Shown here in pieces: positions 1 through 17,149 of a stretch of DNA of 23,016 bases (within the stretch, counting starts at the first letter, position 1; each line of letters starts with the position of its first letter). Source of the DNA: a virus; IMG/VR virus record IMGVR_UViG_3300006802_000612, positions 1 through 23,016 of that record; one strand, given 5' to 3'. The position numbers and the translations under genes are program-made. Below the pieces are notes generated by a model that saw only the letters and a program-made list of their open reading frames with translations, was not told the origin of the DNA and searched no databases.

Positions 1-670
1 ACTTACAATCAATATCAATAAAATTTAAACCGCAATTTATGTCGAGTTCAGCATCAAAAATATATGGCTTAATAGTCTCTATTAAAGCTTCTTCATTGCA
101 AGGCTTGTTAGATTTAGCATAACTTCGGTAGCCATCTTTTTTAAATATAAGAAAATTGTTGGCAAATTGTTTTTCGGTCATCTTTAAAATAGATGGATGT
201 ATGAAGTTAATTTGTGAGTATAAGTCAAGCAAGCTATTAGTAAGCGGAGTGCCGTTTAGTATCAATCTAAACTTAAATAAATGCCAATTAGATACAAGCC
301 TTGCCGTTCTCTTGGCAATTAGGTTCTTAATAGTTATACTCTCATCAACAATACAAAAACTAGCTTTATTTGTTGCTAACGAAACAAGCTGTAAATACTT
401 ATTATCGCTACCTCCGATGCTTTCAATTGTAAAGTAATGTATTGGCTTTGTTAAGTTAAAACTCCATTTATCTATTTCGGCAATATAAGATTGTGATTTT
501 ATCAATGAAGCAGGTGCTATCCATATGATACAATCATAATCATCTTGTTTAGATATAGCCAAGTCCATTGCAACCTTTGTTTTGCCAGTTCCCATTGACA
601 TAAACAAAATGCCACCTTTAAGCTTGCTTAATTTTTCAAAAGCTCTTTTTTGATAATCAAAATTACTCAC
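1..670 (-). CDS. DEAD/SNF2-like helicase, 3' part outside the window
   Basis: The first 223 residues are visible and the reading frame is open to the left edge. I place the start at a GTG whose codon lies inside the stop region of the ParB-like gene upstream (8-base overlap, GTGAGTAA), which suggests translational coupling. No ATG lies closer to that junction. Visible superfamily 2 features are a YQKRA motif near residue 6, a Walker A at about residues 25-31 (SMGTGKT), a motif II of the form VDES followed by IKN, and motif III-like LNGTPLTN. The family is an ATP-driven translocase or helicase acting on DNA or RNA. The C-terminal helicase lobe is not in the window. It is the last visible gene of an operon starting at 2989, so its job is probably tied to the IbrA/IbrB-like proteins. 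A generic phage replication or repair helicase is the alternative. Confidence 0.85.
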   Translation of the reverse strand, partial: MSNFDYQKRAFEKLSKLKGGILFMSMGTGKTKVAMDLAISKQDDYDCIIWIAPASLIKSQSYIAEIDKWSFNLTKPIHYFTIESIGGSDNKYLQLVSLATNKASFCIVDESITIKNLIAKRTARLVSNWHLFKFRLILNGTPLTNSLLDLYSQINFIHPSILKMTEKQFANNFLIFKKDGYRSYAKSNKPCNEEALIETIKPYIFDAELDINCGLNFIDIDCK

Positions 671-1172
671 CAACCTCCCAAGATTTAGAAAATTCTTTAT
701 CTTTAAATAATGAAGCAAGCCCTGTTATTTGTTTCATTCTTAAAAGTTCATCGGCATCCATGCCAAGGTGTTTAGCAATCCATTTATCGCTTTTACCCAT
801 TTCTAATAGCTCGGCAACAATATTTGACATTAAATCTACGGAGTGCGAACCTCTTGCTCTGTTGTGCCTAATTGTCGAAGCCATCCTATTACTAATATCT
901 TTTTCTATTACAACAACTGGTAATTTTCCGCCCTCTCTTTCATAAATATCTTTATGTTTATTGATAATTGTGTATCGGTGGAAGCCATCAACTATCTCAT
1001 ATTTATCAATATCTGCTAAATAATAACAAACAATTGGCATTGTGTAGCCATCATTAAGAATTGATTGATAAAGCAACTTCATTTCAGGTGAAGCTACACT
1101 GTTAGGGTTGTAAGCATTTGCTTGTATTTTTTCTACTGAAACTGCAATAACATTATAAACTGGACTTGTCAT
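663..1172 (-). CDS. ParB/sulfiredoxin-like domain protein, IbrB-like
   Basis: 169 residues. The N-terminal half is a ParB-N/Srx-type domain with the signature EIVDGFHRYTI at about residues 59-69, followed by NRARGSHSVD at about 104-113. A helix-turn-helix-like segment follows (KSDKWIAKHLGMDADELLRMKQITGL). This order matches IbrB, which in E. coli is encoded beside the PAPS-reductase-like IbrA. Here too the upstream neighbour is an IbrA-like gene, 3 bases away. ParB-N domains bind nucleotides (CTP) and many act on DNA. The precise activity of IbrB is not established, so a regulatory or DNA-binding role is inference. There is no ParA partner, so plasmid-style partition is unlikely. Confidence 0.85.
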   Translation of the reverse strand: MTSPVYNVIAVSVEKIQANAYNPNSVASPEMKLLYQSILNDGYTMPIVCYYLADIDKYEIVDGFHRYTIINKHKDIYEREGGKLPVVVIEKDISNRMASTIRHNRARGSHSVDLMSNIVAELLEMGKSDKWIAKHLGMDADELLRMKQITGLASLFKDKEFSKSWEVGE

Positions 1173-1175
1173 ATT

Positions 1176-2468
1176 TTATAAATTTTTATATTTTGTTAAT
1201 AATTCTTTCATTCGCTCTTGCTGTTGTTTAGTTTGAGTAAATGAAATTGTTTTGCATAAATGATCGTTTTTAAGAATACAAATTGCCATTCTCCGCCAAG
1301 TCGGAGCTAATTTTGCACTTTCAATTTTAACATCTAAACAATCATTGATTTTTGTATAGACTAAAAGCTTTTTATCTTTTTTGCCTCTTGTAGATATTTT
1401 TTCTAATATTTTTGCACCTTCTGGCAATTTGTTTTCAAGATTATTACGAACTGGACAACCTTTTTTGTTCCAATATTTCATAAACTTAATAAATCTTTTC
1501 TTGTAGTGATTAGCAAGTTCAGGCGGTAATGTTGAAAGCAATAATTTTGTATAACTTTTCCAAGTATGCCCCTTTGGTAATTTAACCTTACCATAGCCCA
1601 TAATTTTCTCGCCACAATAGATATTGCCAAAATTAGCTCCGCTTACTCTATTAACAACTTTAGCCCAAGTCTCCTGCTCTATTACTCGAAACAATGCTAA
1701 TCCTATTCTTTGATCGTCGCCATAGGGTTGACAAATTCTTTGATTAGCAATCGACAAGCCAGCTTTCCAAAACAAATCATAAACTTTGTTATAATCCCAA
1801 TTAAATTTAGCATTGCCAACCCATATATCTTCGGTAGTCCAATCATAAATCGGATAACAATTAAAGACATCATTAGAAATTTGAGTAGTCCATATCTTGT
1901 TTTGAAACATCTTTTTATCTTTACTAGCAATTGTTCGGTATCTATTTAAACTCTCATCGCTCCTGATACCAACTAAACAAGCGGTTGTTTTTCCTTTAGA
2001 AAACCACTTTCCAAATGCTGGTGTAAATTGCTCAAACTCCATTTTTTCTTTAAAAAAATCAAAATAATCAAGACTAGAAATAACATAGTCACGAATTGGC
2101 ATTTGCCTTATCCACTTGTCTTGTTGCTCACTATCCCAACAAGTCCAAAACGGATTGAATACACTAACAGCATTACGAAGAGTAAGAGGAAGGCAAACAA
2201 AATAAGGCTCTATTAAGTCAAGGTTGCTGTCAATAGTGTTTAAGATATAGTCAATTGTTGCCTTGTATTGCCCTTCTAAATCGACTACTAAAACTCCTAT
2301 TTTTTCTTTAATATTATTAGCTCGCATATAATCAAGAGTAAGATTAAGCATCACTCCGCTATCTTTACCGCCACTAAACGATAAATAAACTTTCTCAAAA
2401 TTGTCAAAAATAAATTTTAACCTATCTTGTGAAGCTTCATAAACATTCTTATCAAGATACTTTTTCAT
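1176..2468 (-). CDS. PAPS-reductase-family PP-loop protein (DUF3440, IbrA-like)
   Basis: 430 residues. The PP-loop SGGKDS is at residues 32-37, the diagnostic ATP-pyrophosphatase motif of the adenine nucleotide alpha-hydrolase fold used by PAPS reductases. Further family motifs are GIRSDESLNRYR, YPIYDWTTEDIW and a QPYGDDQR segment. A C-terminal extension beyond a normal cysH domain is typical of the DUF3440/IbrA group. The true reaction is not known. Members resemble DndC-type sulfur-mobilising enzymes in fold, so nucleotide activation or sulfur transfer is possible but unproven. The start overlaps the end of the small upstream gene by 17 bases. The pairing with an IbrB-like gene is conserved in E. 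coli and other phage-type loci. Confidence 0.88.
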   Translation of the reverse strand: MKKYLDKNVYEASQDRLKFIFDNFEKVYLSFSGGKDSGVMLNLTLDYMRANNIKEKIGVLVVDLEGQYKATIDYILNTIDSNLDLIEPYFVCLPLTLRNAVSVFNPFWTCWDSEQQDKWIRQMPIRDYVISSLDYFDFFKEKMEFEQFTPAFGKWFSKGKTTACLVGIRSDESLNRYRTIASKDKKMFQNKIWTTQISNDVFNCYPIYDWTTEDIWVGNAKFNWDYNKVYDLFWKAGLSIANQRICQPYGDDQRIGLALFRVIEQETWAKVVNRVSGANFGNIYCGEKIMGYGKVKLPKGHTWKSYTKLLLSTLPPELANHYKKRFIKFMKYWNKKGCPVRNNLENKLPEGAKILEKISTRGKKDKKLLVYTKINDCLDVKIESAKLAPTWRRMAICILKNDHLCKTISFTQTKQQQERMKELLTKYKNL

Positions 2469-2709
2469 ATATTAAATCATTGATTGCTGTTTGATTAAAT
2501 ACTGGCTCAATAGTTTTAGGTATGTGTATATAATTTTCATATTTTATCTTTTTGCTTTGTGCCAGTTTATCATCAATTATAATAGAATTACCTTTGCCAA
2601 ATCTAATAGCTACCTTTGGCAACCAAGCCATTACTTCATCCTTGAATAAGATGAAGTAGGCTTTTTCGGTCTCCCTCATTATTTGCTTAAACTTCGCTTT
2701 CACTTTCAT
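2452..2709 (-). CDS. small unknown protein, paralogue of its upstream neighbour
   Basis: 85 residues from the ATG at 2709. A TTG four codons upstream is possible but less attractive. I recognise no family. It aligns by eye with the gene just upstream: both have a T-E-K-A tetrapeptide near residue 13-20, then a beta-like stretch, a W-x-P motif (AWLPK here, FWHPAK there) and R-x-x-G-K. Both end with an IEPV/IEEV-like segment and a short amphipathic helix. The start lies inside the end of that upstream gene and the stop lies inside the start of the IbrA-like gene. It is therefore translated as part of the same operon. A role as accessory subunit or small nucleic-acid-binding partner is a guess. 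Confidence 0.7.
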   Translation of the reverse strand: MKVKAKFKQIMRETEKAYFILFKDEVMAWLPKVAIRFGKGNSIIIDDKLAQSKKIKYENYIHIPKTIEPVFNQTAINDLIYEKVS

Positions 2710-2989
2710 TTTTCGGTGCAAATATTTCTTGAATTTGTTTGGCTGTGTATTCTACTTCCTCGATTTTAGTGAATGAAGTTGTTTTGCCTTCGCCATTTCT
2801 AAAGCATTTAAATTTAAACTCTTCTGTAAAACTAATTGTCATTAAATAGCCATTCTTACCACTAGTTCTAACACATTTTGCGGGGTGCCAAAACATTAAT
2901 TTAGATTTTGGAAGTTTAATTAAAACTGCTTTTTCGGTTTTTGTTTCAATTAAGTTTGAATTTGCTGTTACTTGGATCCAGTTTGTCAT
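2687..2989 (-). CDS. small unknown protein, first gene of the IbrA/IbrB operon
   Basis: 100 residues with no family I can name. It carries TEKAVLIKLPK, then FWHPAKCVR and SGKNGYLMTISF, an arrangement mirrored in the downstream gene, so the two are probable tandem duplicates. No membrane segment or signal peptide is seen, and the composition is soluble and mildly basic. It is the promoter-proximal gene of the leftward operon, with the promoter at 3042-3070. The start is preceded by an A-rich leader rather than a Shine-Dalgarno. A distant resemblance of its TISFT segment to the C-terminus of the IbrA-like protein (KTISFTQT) was noticed but is too short to rely on. Confidence 0.7.
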   Translation of the reverse strand: MTNWIQVTANSNLIETKTEKAVLIKLPKSKLMFWHPAKCVRTSGKNGYLMTISFTEEFKFKCFRNGEGKTTSFTKIEEVEYTAKQIQEIFAPKNESESEV

Positions 2990-3016: not shown

Positions 3017-3036
3017 TATCAAAATTTTTTTTGATA
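3017..3036. promoter_or_regulatory. palindrome at the transcription start, candidate operator
   Basis: TATCAAAA, four T, TTTTGATA: a perfect 8-bp inverted repeat. It begins about 6 bases downstream of the -10 element and covers the predicted start of the leftward operon. The position fits a repressor site. An RNA hairpin at the 5' end of the message is the alternative. Confidence 0.5.
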
Positions 3037-3041
3037 TACAT

Positions 3042-3070
3042 AGTTTAACTATTTAAAAAATAAATGTCAA
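3042..3070 (-). promoter_or_regulatory. sigma-70 promoter of the IbrA/IbrB-like operon
   Basis: On the minus strand there is TTGACA (3065-3070), a 17-base spacer and TAAACT (3042-3047). The predicted start site is near 3035, inside an 8-bp palindrome. The layout is the same as the early promoters further right, so this operon probably belongs to the same expression class. Confidence 0.75.
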
Positions 3071-14652: not shown

Positions 14653-15501
14653 TTAAAATTTTTTATTTAAATAATAGTTGATAAAAAGTTGTTTAAAAAA
14701 ATTATGTTTTTTTGTGTTAATATAGCTATAAAAACCATCCCCTGCAAATGTTTTTATGTTATCATATTTAATAAAAAATTCTGTTAACATATAACTTTTA
14801 TAAAATGTTAAAATTTGGTTTCTTGTATTGCAAAATTCAATTTGCTTAATAAAATCACTTATTGATTTATTATTTTTCATTTCTTCAAAAATCGGATTCC
14901 ATAAATCTTTGCTAGAATTTTCCAAACGAAAACAATCAAAAAATTTATTAAAAAAATTAAATTTAGCATTCGGTAAAAATGATAAGTATTGTGGCAACCA
15001 AGAAAAACTAGCCATAGCATAATCGTGTTCTTTTGTAGTAAAGCGGCTTTCAACAATCGCACCTATTTTTGTGGCAATATCAGTAATTACATAACAGGCT
15101 GTATAACTGTTTTCTTTTGAAGCACAAATAAACCATTTTTTACCAACAAATAAATCAGGATTAGCATTTTCATAGCCTCGTTTATGAGAACCTGCCATTG
15201 GGTGGCATAAAACAAAGTTATCATTAAAATTAATATCAAAATCTTTTTTAGACATTACATCAAAAATTATTGCTTTTTTATCTGCACTAACAATTTCAGC
15301 AATTTTTTTAAAATTTTTTAAATGGCAAGCAATAACAATTAAATCAAAATTATTGCTTAAAATATTTTCTTTGGCAATATTGGGCTGTTCTAATAAAATA
15401 TTTTCATCTACAATAAAAATATTTTGTGTTATATTATATTTTTTAAAAGCTTTTTCAATAGAGCCTCCCATCATTCCTCTACCTATTATAAGTGTTTTCA
15501 T
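14653..15501 (-). CDS. prephenate dehydrogenase-like (TyrA fold) NAD(P)-binding protein
   Basis: 282 residues. A Rossmann start (LIIGRGMMGGSI, G7-x-G9-x-x-G12), the TyrA motif CHPMAGSHKRGYENANPDLF with the catalytic-type His100, and HDYAMASFSWLPQYLSF at 159-175. In true prephenate dehydrogenases this last motif reads HD...SHLPH. Here both His are replaced (Trp168, Gln171), so the substrate may not be prephenate. The protein is first in the operon, under the promoter at 15532-15560, ahead of thyX. A host-derived auxiliary metabolic gene or a repurposed dehydrogenase are the options. Confidence 0.75.
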   Translation of the reverse strand: MKTLIIGRGMMGGSIEKAFKKYNITQNIFIVDENILLEQPNIAKENILSNNFDLIVIACHLKNFKKIAEIVSADKKAIIFDVMSKKDFDINFNDNFVLCHPMAGSHKRGYENANPDLFVGKKWFICASKENSYTACYVITDIATKIGAIVESRFTTKEHDYAMASFSWLPQYLSFLPNAKFNFFNKFFDCFRLENSSKDLWNPIFEEMKNNKSISDFIKQIEFCNTRNQILTFYKSYMLTEFFIKYDNIKTFAGDGFYSYINTKKHNFFKQLFINYYLNKKF

Positions 15502-15524
15502 ATTATTTTATTTTAAGTTGTTAA
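15499..15524 (-). promoter_or_regulatory. A-rich leader element before the TyrA-like gene
   Basis: This is one of six near-identical leaders (consensus YTAACAAYTTAAAAT, an A-rich run, ATATG) that end at start codons. The others are at 18551-18576, 19562-19587, 20375-20401, 20508-20533 and 20742-20770. None contains a Shine-Dalgarno. It is probably a translation-enhancing or S1-type A/U-rich ribosome site. Confidence 0.6.
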
Positions 15525-15531
15525 TGCGATA

Positions 15532-15560
15532 ATTTTAAAACATTAAGATTAAGTTGTCAA
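15532..15560 (-). promoter_or_regulatory. sigma-70 promoter of the tyrA-thyX operon
   Basis: On the minus strand there is TTGACA (15555-15560), a 17-base spacer and TAAAAT (15532-15537). The leader element follows at once. It lies in the gap after the stop of the upstream gene (15569) and would drive nine or more genes down to 11636. Confidence 0.85.
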
Positions 15561-16189: not shown

Positions 16190-16731
16190 TATTTTAAAAC
16201 CTCCAACTCGGCTTTAATGTCTCTGTTGTTTGCTTTTACATCGCTGTATTTTTCGCCATATCTTTTTTGTAGTTTTAAAATATTTTTTTCTAAACCAAGT
16301 TGCCAAAGATTGCCAAACTCTTGATTAAATAAAAAATAAATATCTTCTATTTTCTCAATAAATTCTTTTATTTCGCAGAACGGTTTATTATACATTATAA
16401 CTTTTTTCATATTATCGGCAACATCAAAGGCAAGTTGTTTAATTTTAGTCAAATCTTTTGTGCCAGTTATTTTACCACTAAAATTTAAATCAAAGTTAAA
16501 TACATCACTTAAAAGGGCAATATACCAAGCACAATCGCCTAACTCTTCAATAATATTAATCTCATCATTTTTAATAATTGCTTGCTCTAGCTCATCTATT
16601 TCTAAATATAAATAAGATCCGTGTAATTTTCTTAAAGTTATAGCATTTAATCTTTCTAGTATTAAGTCATAATCTTTAATTTCGGTTCTTAAAGCTAGCT
16701 CTTTGTATTGCCTAAAATTTATATTTGTCAT
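16189..16731 (-). CDS. MazG-like nucleotide pyrophosphohydrolase
   Basis: 180 residues. The all-alpha NTP pyrophosphatase motif is visible: E44-x-x-E47 (LEIDE) and E63-x-x-D66 (IEELGDCAWYIALL), the metal-binding residues. The C-terminus has the phage-specific ending NILKLQKRYGEKYSDVKANNRD, similar to many phage MazG-family proteins. Members hydrolyse (d)NTPs to NMP and pyrophosphate. Phage copies are thought to adjust nucleotide pools or ppGpp. The spacer before it (16732-16798) has only a 4-bp hairpin and no promoter I can defend. Confidence 0.8.
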   Translation of the reverse strand: MTNINFRQYKELALRTEIKDYDLILERLNAITLRKLHGSYLYLEIDELEQAIIKNDEINIIEELGDCAWYIALLSDVFNFDLNFSGKITGTKDLTKIKQLAFDVADNMKKVIMYNKPFCEIKEFIEKIEDIYFLFNQEFGNLWQLGLEKNILKLQKRYGEKYSDVKANNRDIKAELEVLK

Positions 16732-16798
16732 ATGTTTATTATTTTAAAAAAGTTGTAATTAAAAATAAAATTATTATGTAGTGCAGAAAAAAAGCACA

Positions 16799-16990
16799 TT
16801 ATTTTACATTTTTTATTTTTGATAATTCTTGTATTCTTTGTTTAGCCAAATTTCTAATTCTGTTCCTGTCGTCGGCTGTTTCGATTTCAGGGTAGTATTT
16901 TTCAATTTCTAAAAATGTTATTAGCTCGGCAAAATCTGTTGAGATGGTTGCTTGCTCTTCTAAAAAAGAAAGTCTTTTTTCTGTTATCAT
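16799..16990 (-). CDS. 63-residue unknown protein
   Basis: A short, charged, helical protein (LSFLEEQATISTDFAELITF near the start; a basic DRNRIRNLAKQRIQ segment). No family is recognised. It follows the ribbon-helix-helix gene by six bases, so both are probably one unit downstream of yqaJ. Confidence 0.55.
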   Translation of the reverse strand: MITEKRLSFLEEQATISTDFAELITFLEIEKYYPEIETADDRNRIRNLAKQRIQELSKIKNVK

Positions 16991-16996
16991 ATTTAA

Positions 16997-17149
16997 TTAT
17001 TTTTTTAATTTTTCTTTATTTAAAAACTCTTCCAAAGCTTTTCTTACAACAAAAGAAAAAGATCGTTCGGTTTCTTTTGCATAATTTGTTAAATCTTTAT
17101 AAAGATCTTCACTTTTTAAATCGGTTGTGATTAGTAATTGTTTTTTCAT
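16997..17149 (-). CDS. 50-residue ribbon-helix-helix protein
   Basis: A beta strand (KKQLLITTDL) is followed by two helices (EDLYKDLTNYAKET and FSFVVRKALEEFLNK). This is the layout of MetJ/Arc/CopG DNA-binding proteins, which dimerise through the strand and bind operator DNA. The size is typical (45-55). It sits between yqaJ and a small unknown gene in the second early unit. It could be the repressor for one of the palindromes at the early promoters, for example 19589-19607; this is inference from position. Confidence 0.65.
   Translation of the reverse strand: MKKQLLITTDLKSEDLYKDLTNYAKETERSFSFVVRKALEEFLNKEKLKK

What the first reader, a model, noticed from the sequence alone, without database searches (positions are those of the whole stretch)
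1..2989. Compact phage operon: two paralogous small proteins + IbrA-like + IbrB-like + helicase
Five genes overlap or nearly touch, and the operon has its own strong promoter with a start-site palindrome. IbrA/IbrB pairs are known from E. coli, where they boost expression of immunoglobulin-binding genes. The PP-loop enzyme resembles sulfur- and nucleotide-activating enzymes, and ParB-N domains bind nucleotides. A helicase and a duplicated pair of ~90-residue proteins, coupled to them, look like a complete multi-component system (DNA modification, anti-defence, or regulation). The small proteins are, as far as I can tell, undescribed.
Basis: partly seen in the sequence, partly recalled or inferred. 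Interest (0 to 1): 0.72.

Follow-up and report, generated by a model that had tools for sequence, protein, structure and literature searches.

The report
Phage IbrAB–helicase cassette with swappable core
A phage fragment carries a self-contained five-gene cassette, two small barrel-like proteins, an ATP-using enzyme (IbrA), a ParB-like DNA-binding protein (IbrB) and a motor helicase, found in phages of unrelated bacteria, whose enzyme part is swapped as a block between near-identical copies; it probably acts on DNA, but its chemistry is unknown.

Summary
Five overlapping genes lie on the minus strand of 1-2989: s1, s2, IbrA (DUF3440), IbrB (ParB_N plus a HTH-like tail) and a SNF2 helicase cut by the contig end. 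The operon has its own promoter with a dyad at the start site. Relatives show the helicase is the last gene and is not part of a replication module. The same cassette sits between tail genes, between terminase and portal, or elsewhere: it is mobile cargo.
New here: (1) s1/s2 follow the helicase rather than IbrA (52 of 54 loci with s1/s2 have it). The small protein beside the helicase often keeps a C-terminal tail although heads differ (32/71 loci with helicase, 5/112 without; shuffles predict 2.1 and 3.7). (2) Window and L018 are ~100% identical in s1-s2 and helicase but only 42-80% identical across ibrA-ibrB, where L018 has the other IbrA subtype plus an ectoine-synthase-like cupin: an exchanged cassette. 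(3) IbrA folds like FAD synthase, CysD and PAPS reductases but lacks the reductase cysteine motif and any DndC-like cysteine set, so it is unlikely to be cysH or a Dnd sulfur enzyme.
Best reading: a DNA-acting, probably DNA-modifying, phage module; chemistry unproven.

The parts
2687..2989 (-). s1: 100-aa adaptor-like protein, predicted small beta protein with C-terminal helix, no tail motif in this lineage
   Evidence: phrog_27058 4.2e-18; AF2 pLDDT 87, pTM 0.75; no clear PDB match, best Z 3.4
2452..2709 (-). s2: 85-aa remote paralog of s1, head plus C-terminal tail
   Evidence: alignments A2/A6; hhalign s1 vs s2 E 2.4e-5
2473..2526 (-). conserved C-terminal tail of s2 (HIPKTIEPVFNQTAINDL), proposed docking peptide for the helicase
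   Evidence: tail statistics; same tail on different heads
1176..2468 (-). ibrA: PP-loop ATP-pyrophosphatase fold plus DUF3440, subtype RICQPYGDDQR
   Evidence: Pfam DUF3440 2.9e-52, PAPS_reduct 9.7e-12; AF2 pLDDT 86; FAD synthase Z 16.1, PAPS/APS reductases Z about 13.5-15.3, CysD Z 15.2; cysteine survey
663..1172 (-). ibrB: ParB_N-like (DGFHR, RHNRARG) plus HTH-like C-terminus
   Evidence: phrog_2159 4.5e-81; 19 of 19 family members match ParB_N; alignment A4
1..670 (-). SNF2-type helicase, first 223 aa of about 412 (contig end)
   Evidence: SNF2-rel_dom 9.6e-14; full-length copy in L018 with ~100% identical DNA over the shared part
3042..3070 (-). sigma-70-like promoter TTGACA-17-TAAACT
   Evidence: similar promoters upstream of s1 in relatives
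3017..3036 (-). operator-like dyad TATCAAAA-AAAA-TTTTGATA at the predicted transcription start
701..2300 (-). exchanged block: ibrA from about codon 57 through nearly all of ibrB
   Evidence: sliding identity against L018 (42-80% inside, 100% at 3100-2701 and 700-1) and against L002 (82-100% inside, 53-80% outside except the 2500-2301 edge); dN/dS table

Best explanation
This is a phage-borne cargo cassette that acts on DNA. SHOWN by sequence: a tightly coupled operon; s1/s2 travel with the SNF2 helicase; IbrA and IbrB form the core and can be fused; the IbrA-IbrB block is exchanged on a constant s1-s2/helicase chassis; IbrA has a PP-loop adenylating fold without the catalytic cysteine motif of sulfate reductases or the cysteine set of DndC. 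INFERRED: the small proteins are adaptors that bind a nucleic acid or protein with their beta heads and dock the helicase through their C-terminal tail; the SNF2 motor moves along or opens DNA; IbrB, a ParB_N plus HTH protein, targets the complex to DNA; IbrA uses ATP to adenylate (activate) a phosphate or other group, most likely on DNA or a nucleotide, in the manner of FAD synthase or CysD. In the SPF subtype an ectoine-synthase-like cupin often adds a further step. The most likely outcome is a chemical mark on phage DNA that protects it or changes transcription, which would also fit the reported IbrAB activation of prophage eib genes in E. coli. Exchange of the IbrA-(cupin)-IbrB block would change the mark.
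For: Association: 52 of 54 loci with s1/s2 have the helicase; the exceptions are L019 (contig ends) and L199. Tail motif in 32/71 helicase loci and 5/112 others; shuffles predict 2.1 and 3.7. Fusobacterium phage phiFN37 has a third gene order (ibrA-ibrB-s1-helicase), and its s1 (phrog_27058 6.7e-8) is again next to the helicase. Streptococcus phages 94 and CHPC1148 are 99.98% identical over 5.4 kb including ibrA-ibrB, yet phage 94 lacks s1 and most of the helicase and keeps a 79-aa ORF ending in the helicase C-terminus. Exchange. Subtypes: cupin only with SPF IbrA, 27/49 against 0/58 viral loci, p 3e-12. Natural fusions: IbrA-IbrB 539 aa in L229; cupin-IbrB ORFs such as L106, L107. IbrA fold. 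Cysteines over 183 IbrA: only C92 (95%) and C405 (89%) widely kept, CGxH in 1/183, CxxC in 8/183. Same cassette at different genome positions. Present in phage FCL-2, whose authors saw no lysogeny (PMC4541368), so it probably serves lytic growth.
Against: No biochemical evidence that any DNA is modified. No recognised modification gene (methylase, desulfurase, glycosyltransferase) is in the operon. IbrA-IbrB occur without an adjacent helicase in 112 of 183 loci, so helicase and adaptors are not essential to the core. The tail regex was written after reading the sequences and does not strictly match phiFN37. C92 at 95% could be catalytic. The reported E. coli phenotype (activation of eib expression) could be plain transcription regulation. 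In alphaproteobacterial genome loci the helicase occurs without a recognisable adaptor.
Confidence: 0.4

Rival explanations
1. Transcription co-activator module: IbrB binds promoters of phage or prophage genes, IbrA supplies a small-molecule or protein modification, and the SNF2 helicase remodels nucleoprotein; no DNA is chemically changed.
For: IbrAB of E. coli ECOR-9 activates prophage eib genes (Sandt et al. 2002, known here only through its title, cited in PMC10434257); IbrB has a ParB_N plus HTH layout; the operon carries an operator-like dyad at its own start.
Against: The PP-loop active site is almost invariant (S.GKDS in 182/183 IbrA), so a catalytic step is expected; block exchange of enzyme types and the cupin partner fit chemistry better than plain transcription control.
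Confidence: 0.25
2. Phage-encoded defence against competing phages (superinfection exclusion): IbrA/IbrB sense or deplete nucleotides and the SNF2 helicase with adaptors attacks incoming DNA.
For: SNF2 helicases and PP-loop enzymes recur in defence systems (weak hits to ZorD, DpdE, DrmD, BrxP); the cassette has its own promoter and moves as cargo.
Against: No nuclease or toxin domain was found; hits to defence proteins are far below curated cut-offs (DrmD 31.6 of 950 bits, ZorD 27 of 1500); persistence in lytic dairy phages gives less advantage to exclusion.
Confidence: 0.2
3. Counter-defence by a protein or nucleotide-level action (for example adenylylating a host defence protein or a signal nucleotide) rather than a DNA mark.
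For: IbrA resembles adenylating enzymes (FAD synthase, CysD); exchange of blocks suggests an arms race.
Against: Does not explain the ParB-like protein and SNF2 motor in the same operon.
Confidence: 0.1
4. Auxiliary metabolic gene for sulfate assimilation (cysH).
For: PAPS_reduct Pfam match 9.7e-12 and the PHROG annotation 'phosphoadenosine phosphosulfate reductase'.
Against: Catalytic CGxH motif in 1/183; cysH NCBIfam score 19 against a cut-off of 165; operon with ParB-like protein and helicase.
Confidence: 0.02
5. Replication or partition module continuing to the left of the window.
For: ParB-like protein and helicase side by side.
Against: In L003, L018, L021 the operon ends at the helicase and opposite-strand structural-type genes follow; the Sak4-like gene and thymidylate synthase lie 13-20 kb away in the window; in phage Pika the Sak4 module has its own helicase.
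Confidence: 0.03

Closest known systems
IbrA/IbrB of E. coli (DUF3440 + ParB-like; prophage eib co-activators)
   Same: Same two core protein families in the same order; E. coli phage PhiR5_2 IbrA is 36.5% identical
   Different: E. coli-type locus lacks adaptors and SNF2 helicase; here the core sits as an exchangeable block on an adaptor/helicase chassis
Streptococcus phage CHPC1062/Pika/CHPC1148 and Lactobacillus phage phiAQ113 loci
   Same: s1-like gene, SNF2 helicase, IbrA, IbrB in one operon
   Different: Gene order s1-helicase-ibrA-ibrB, one small protein (with tail) instead of two, and located after the lysis genes
DndC / SspD (DNA phosphorothioation)
   Same: PP-loop fold with GxRxxES motif, shared with the PAPS-reductase superfamily; a ParB-superfamily partner (DndB) is known there
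   Different: IbrA lacks a conserved cysteine set; DndC score 21 of 290 bits; no DndA, DndD or DndE in the operon
FAD synthase PAPS domain, CysD, PAPS reductase
   Same: Best structural matches of the IbrA N-terminal 260 residues (Z about 14-16)
   Different: IbrA has an extra C-terminal DUF3440 region of about 170 residues barely covered by those matches; catalytic reductase cysteine absent
SNF2-type defence helicases (ZorD, DrmD, DpdE)
   Same: Same helicase superfamily
   Different: Short, about 412 aa; scores far below the curated cut-offs
Ectoine synthase (EctC)
   Same: The accessory cupin of relatives scores 1.5e-43
   Different: Used beside or fused to IbrB in phages; absent from the window's own operon

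Membership tests
IbrA / DUF3440 (PF11922) | DUF3440 domain above the curated cut-off plus PP-loop domain | tested here: met
   177.5 bits against cut-off 25; S.GKDS in 182/183 relatives
IbrAB pair | ibrB (ParB_N) directly next to ibrA | tested here: met
   3-nt gap; conserved across nearly all complete loci
IbrAB pair | activates target (eib) gene expression | not testable with these tools
   needs experiment
PAPS reductase (CysH) | catalytic CGxH (ECGLH) cysteine motif | tested here: not met
   1 of 183 IbrA sequences; cysH score 19 of 165 bits
DndC (DNA phosphorothioation) | curated DndC score; three Fe-S cysteines plus cysteine dyad | tested here: not met
   21.3 of 290.4 bits; only C92 (95%) and C405 (89%) widely kept; requirement from PMC10853773
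Dnd/Ssp system | cysteine desulfurase and DndD/DndE or SspB/SspC partners in the operon | tested here: not met
   gene content of the window operon and complete relatives
ParB partition system | ParB_N domain and adjacent ParA/parS | tested here: inconclusive
   ParB_N in 19/19 relatives; no ParA seen in the operon, parS not searched
SNF2 helicase | SNF2 domain, Walker A, DExx, Helicase_C | tested here: met
   PF00176 51.6 of 24.9 bits; SMGTGKT and DES motifs in the sequence; Helicase_C 3.1e-12 in the full-length CHPC1062 helicase
phrog_27058 (s1) | profile match over most of the protein | tested here: met
   residues 4-95, E 4.2e-18
Known anti-phage defence systems (PADLOC, NCBIfam) | scores above curated cut-offs | tested here: not met
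   all NCBIfam defence hits far below cut-off; only weak PADLOC hits

The most novel reading that the evidence does not exclude
A new class of phage DNA-modification (or DNA-marking) system: an adaptor-loaded SNF2 chassis carrying exchangeable IbrA-IbrB enzyme blocks of at least two biochemical types, one often using an ectoine-synthase-like cupin, with a cysteine-independent adenylation chemistry not known for DNA.
Probability: 0.22. Interest if true: 0.85.

Novelty: new variant of a known kind. Interest (0 to 1): 0.55.

Why it matters
IbrA-like genes are common in phages (213 records with a match in the phage collection) and are labelled PAPS reductase or auxiliary metabolic gene; this work argues that label is wrong and that they belong to a DNA-associated module. 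It gives two unnamed small phage families (phrog_27058, phrog_5809) a testable role as SNF2-helicase partners through a C-terminal tail. The natural block exchange between near-identical operons, and the natural s1-helicase loss in Streptococcus phage 94, offer ready-made experiments on a gene pair whose function has stayed unclear since the E. coli eib work.

Tried and rejected
PDB sequence search for IbrA: no match; for IbrB only a sub-threshold nucleoid-occlusion-protein match and a short match called 'CAP repeat', not used. Structure search of s1: no PDB match above Z 3.4 (SH3-like, KOW-like and KhtT-like rows tie), so no fold name is claimed; the viral library returned only unnamed phage proteins and one annotated DUF3627 from a Spiroplasma phage. 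The 13-bp palindrome ATAGTTAAACTAT over the -10 box occurs only in near-identical copies (L018, L019) and was dropped as evidence; the dyad just downstream is better supported. The strict tail regex fails on phiFN37, so the tail there rests on the full-length PHROG match. megablast of the whole window against phages: no match. Rfam: nothing. Literature searches for IbrA/IbrB, DUF3440, and PAPS reductase with ParB and helicase found no functional study of the module in the held papers. The second 's2' of L003 (4958-5221) has the tail but a different head and was removed from the final s2 alignment. One script stopped before its last table; the table was rerun.
Full report
The window is a whole IMG/VR fragment of 23,016 bases. 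Its left 3 kb holds five minus-strand genes whose ends overlap or nearly touch: s1, s2, ibrA, ibrB and a helicase cut by the contig end. Pfam and PHROG matches identify IbrA (DUF3440 plus PAPS_reduct), IbrB (ParB_N-like, phrog_2159) and a SNF2 helicase. s1 and s2 match no Pfam or NCBIfam family. Their paralogy is remote but supported by profile comparison, and both evolve under purifying selection.

The small genes are not absent from other IbrA/IbrB loci: s1 or s2 occurs in 54 of the fetched loci, and 52 of these have the helicase. This includes Streptococcus and Lactobacillus phages. Some loci overlap on the same contig, so 54 is not a count of independent genomes. The helicase does not belong to a replication module running to the left. 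In L003, L018 and L021 the operon ends with it and is followed by structural-type genes on the opposite strand; in L004 the same cassette lies between terminase and portal-like genes, and in L002 and L195 elsewhere. In the window itself the Sak4-like gene and thymidylate synthase lie far away. The cassette is therefore cargo.

What the small proteins do. Across 183 distinct IbrA loci, 71 have the helicase beside ibrA. The small ORF next to the helicase often ends in a tail of the form [HY]xPxK(I)xPV...(I/V)xELKR, while heads differ between loci; in L003 the tail even sits on a second, unrelated head. A regex for the tail finds it in 32 of 71 helicase loci and 5 of 112 loci without, where shuffled sequences predict 2.1 and 3.7. 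The regex was written after reading the sequences, so the shuffles and the helicase-free loci are the controls. Fusobacterium phage phiFN37, fetched afterwards, has a third gene order, and the gene before its helicase is again an s1. Streptococcus phage 94 is 99.98% identical to CHPC1148 over ibrA-ibrB and beyond, but lacks s1 and most of the helicase together, keeping a 79-aa ORF that ends in the helicase C-terminus. One orphan s1 (L199) is a counter-example. The inference is that s1/s2 are helicase partners, with the tail as docking peptide. The s1 head is a confident all-beta prediction (pLDDT 87) without a clear PDB relative.

The exchanged block. Window and L018 share 100% identity at 3100-2701 and at 700-1, with 90-99% between 2700 and 2301, but only 42-80% from 2300 to 701, that is, from about codon 57 of ibrA through nearly all of ibrB; L018 also has an ectoine-synthase-like cupin gene there. 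Against L002 the pattern is reversed. Thus the enzyme block moves independently of its chassis. IbrA falls into two subtypes by the motif after R244: QPYG (window, E. coli type) and SPF (L018). The cupin occurs only with SPF (27 of 49 viral loci against 0 of 58, p 3e-12), and a free-standing DUF3440-C-terminal-like ORF likewise (28 of 49 against 1 of 58); that ORF rarely co-occurs with the helicase (1 of 38 against 28 of 69). Locus counts include related sequences, so these p values overstate independence. Natural fusions IbrA-IbrB (L229) and cupin-IbrB support joint function.

Chemistry of IbrA. Its predicted fold matches FAD synthase, CysD and PAPS/APS reductases (Z about 14-16, tied). The reductase motif CGxH is present in 1 of 183, and no cysteine set like that of DndC is conserved; C92 (95%) and C405 (89%) are the only widely kept cysteines. 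The invariant PP-loop, D63, E65, R169, E172, S173 and the DWxxxDIW region point to ATP-dependent adenylation. Sulfate assimilation and DndC-type sulfur transfer are therefore not supported; adenylation of a phosphate, as in FAD synthase or CysD, is the favoured inference. Its substrate is unknown.

Regulation. A sigma-70-like promoter lies upstream of s1 in the window and in most relatives, followed by a dyad at the predicted start (TATCAAAA-N4-TTTTGATA in the window; TATCAAGTATTTGCTTGATA in L004; TGTCAAGAGTTCTTGACA in L195).

Verdict. The anatomy, conservation, modular exchange and helicase-adaptor link are shown by sequence. That the module marks DNA is an inference at about 0.4; co-activation of transcription, superinfection exclusion and other counter-defence are live rivals. 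It is filed as a new variant of the IbrAB kind, not as CysH, Dnd or a known defence system.

Noticed in passing
L229:224-1843: A natural IbrA-IbrB fusion of 539 aa in an unannotated human faecal phage scaffold.
   Followed up: partly
L018:1934-2314; L106, L107 and other cupin-IbrB ORFs: An ectoine-synthase-like cupin gene (Pfam 1.5e-43) between ibrA and ibrB, or fused to ibrB, only with the SPF subtype of IbrA.
   Followed up: partly
L227 (Streptococcus phage 94) against L230 (CHPC1148): Otherwise 99.98% identical over 5.4 kb including ibrA-ibrB, but phage 94 lacks s1 and most of the helicase; a 79-aa ORF ending in the helicase C-terminus remains.
   Followed up: yes
L223:8745-9266: Fusobacterium phage phiFN37 has a second ParB-like gene and an annotated queuine tRNA-ribosyltransferase close to the IbrAB-helicase operon, a possible base-modification context.
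   Followed up: no
L036:1702-2091 and many QPYG loci without helicase: A recurrent roughly 125-aa protein with the motif SCEHNLTN...NRxAWLGQAACC directly upstream of ibrA; no Pfam or PHROG match for the member tested.
   Followed up: partly
L009:726-995 and similar ORFs: A free-standing 75-110 aa ORF resembling the C-terminal part of DUF3440, usually with the cupin and rarely with the helicase.
   Followed up: partly
L195:10083-10586; L002:14409-15014, 15022-15537, 16464-17045: Repeated small proteins with 'NDKEVVLKAVKxNGxALEYASEELR'-like repeats downstream of the cassette.
   Followed up: no
L199:5998-6270: An s1 gene without helicase or IbrA in the 2 kb downstream; a small ORF resembling a HTH protein follows.
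   Followed up: partly
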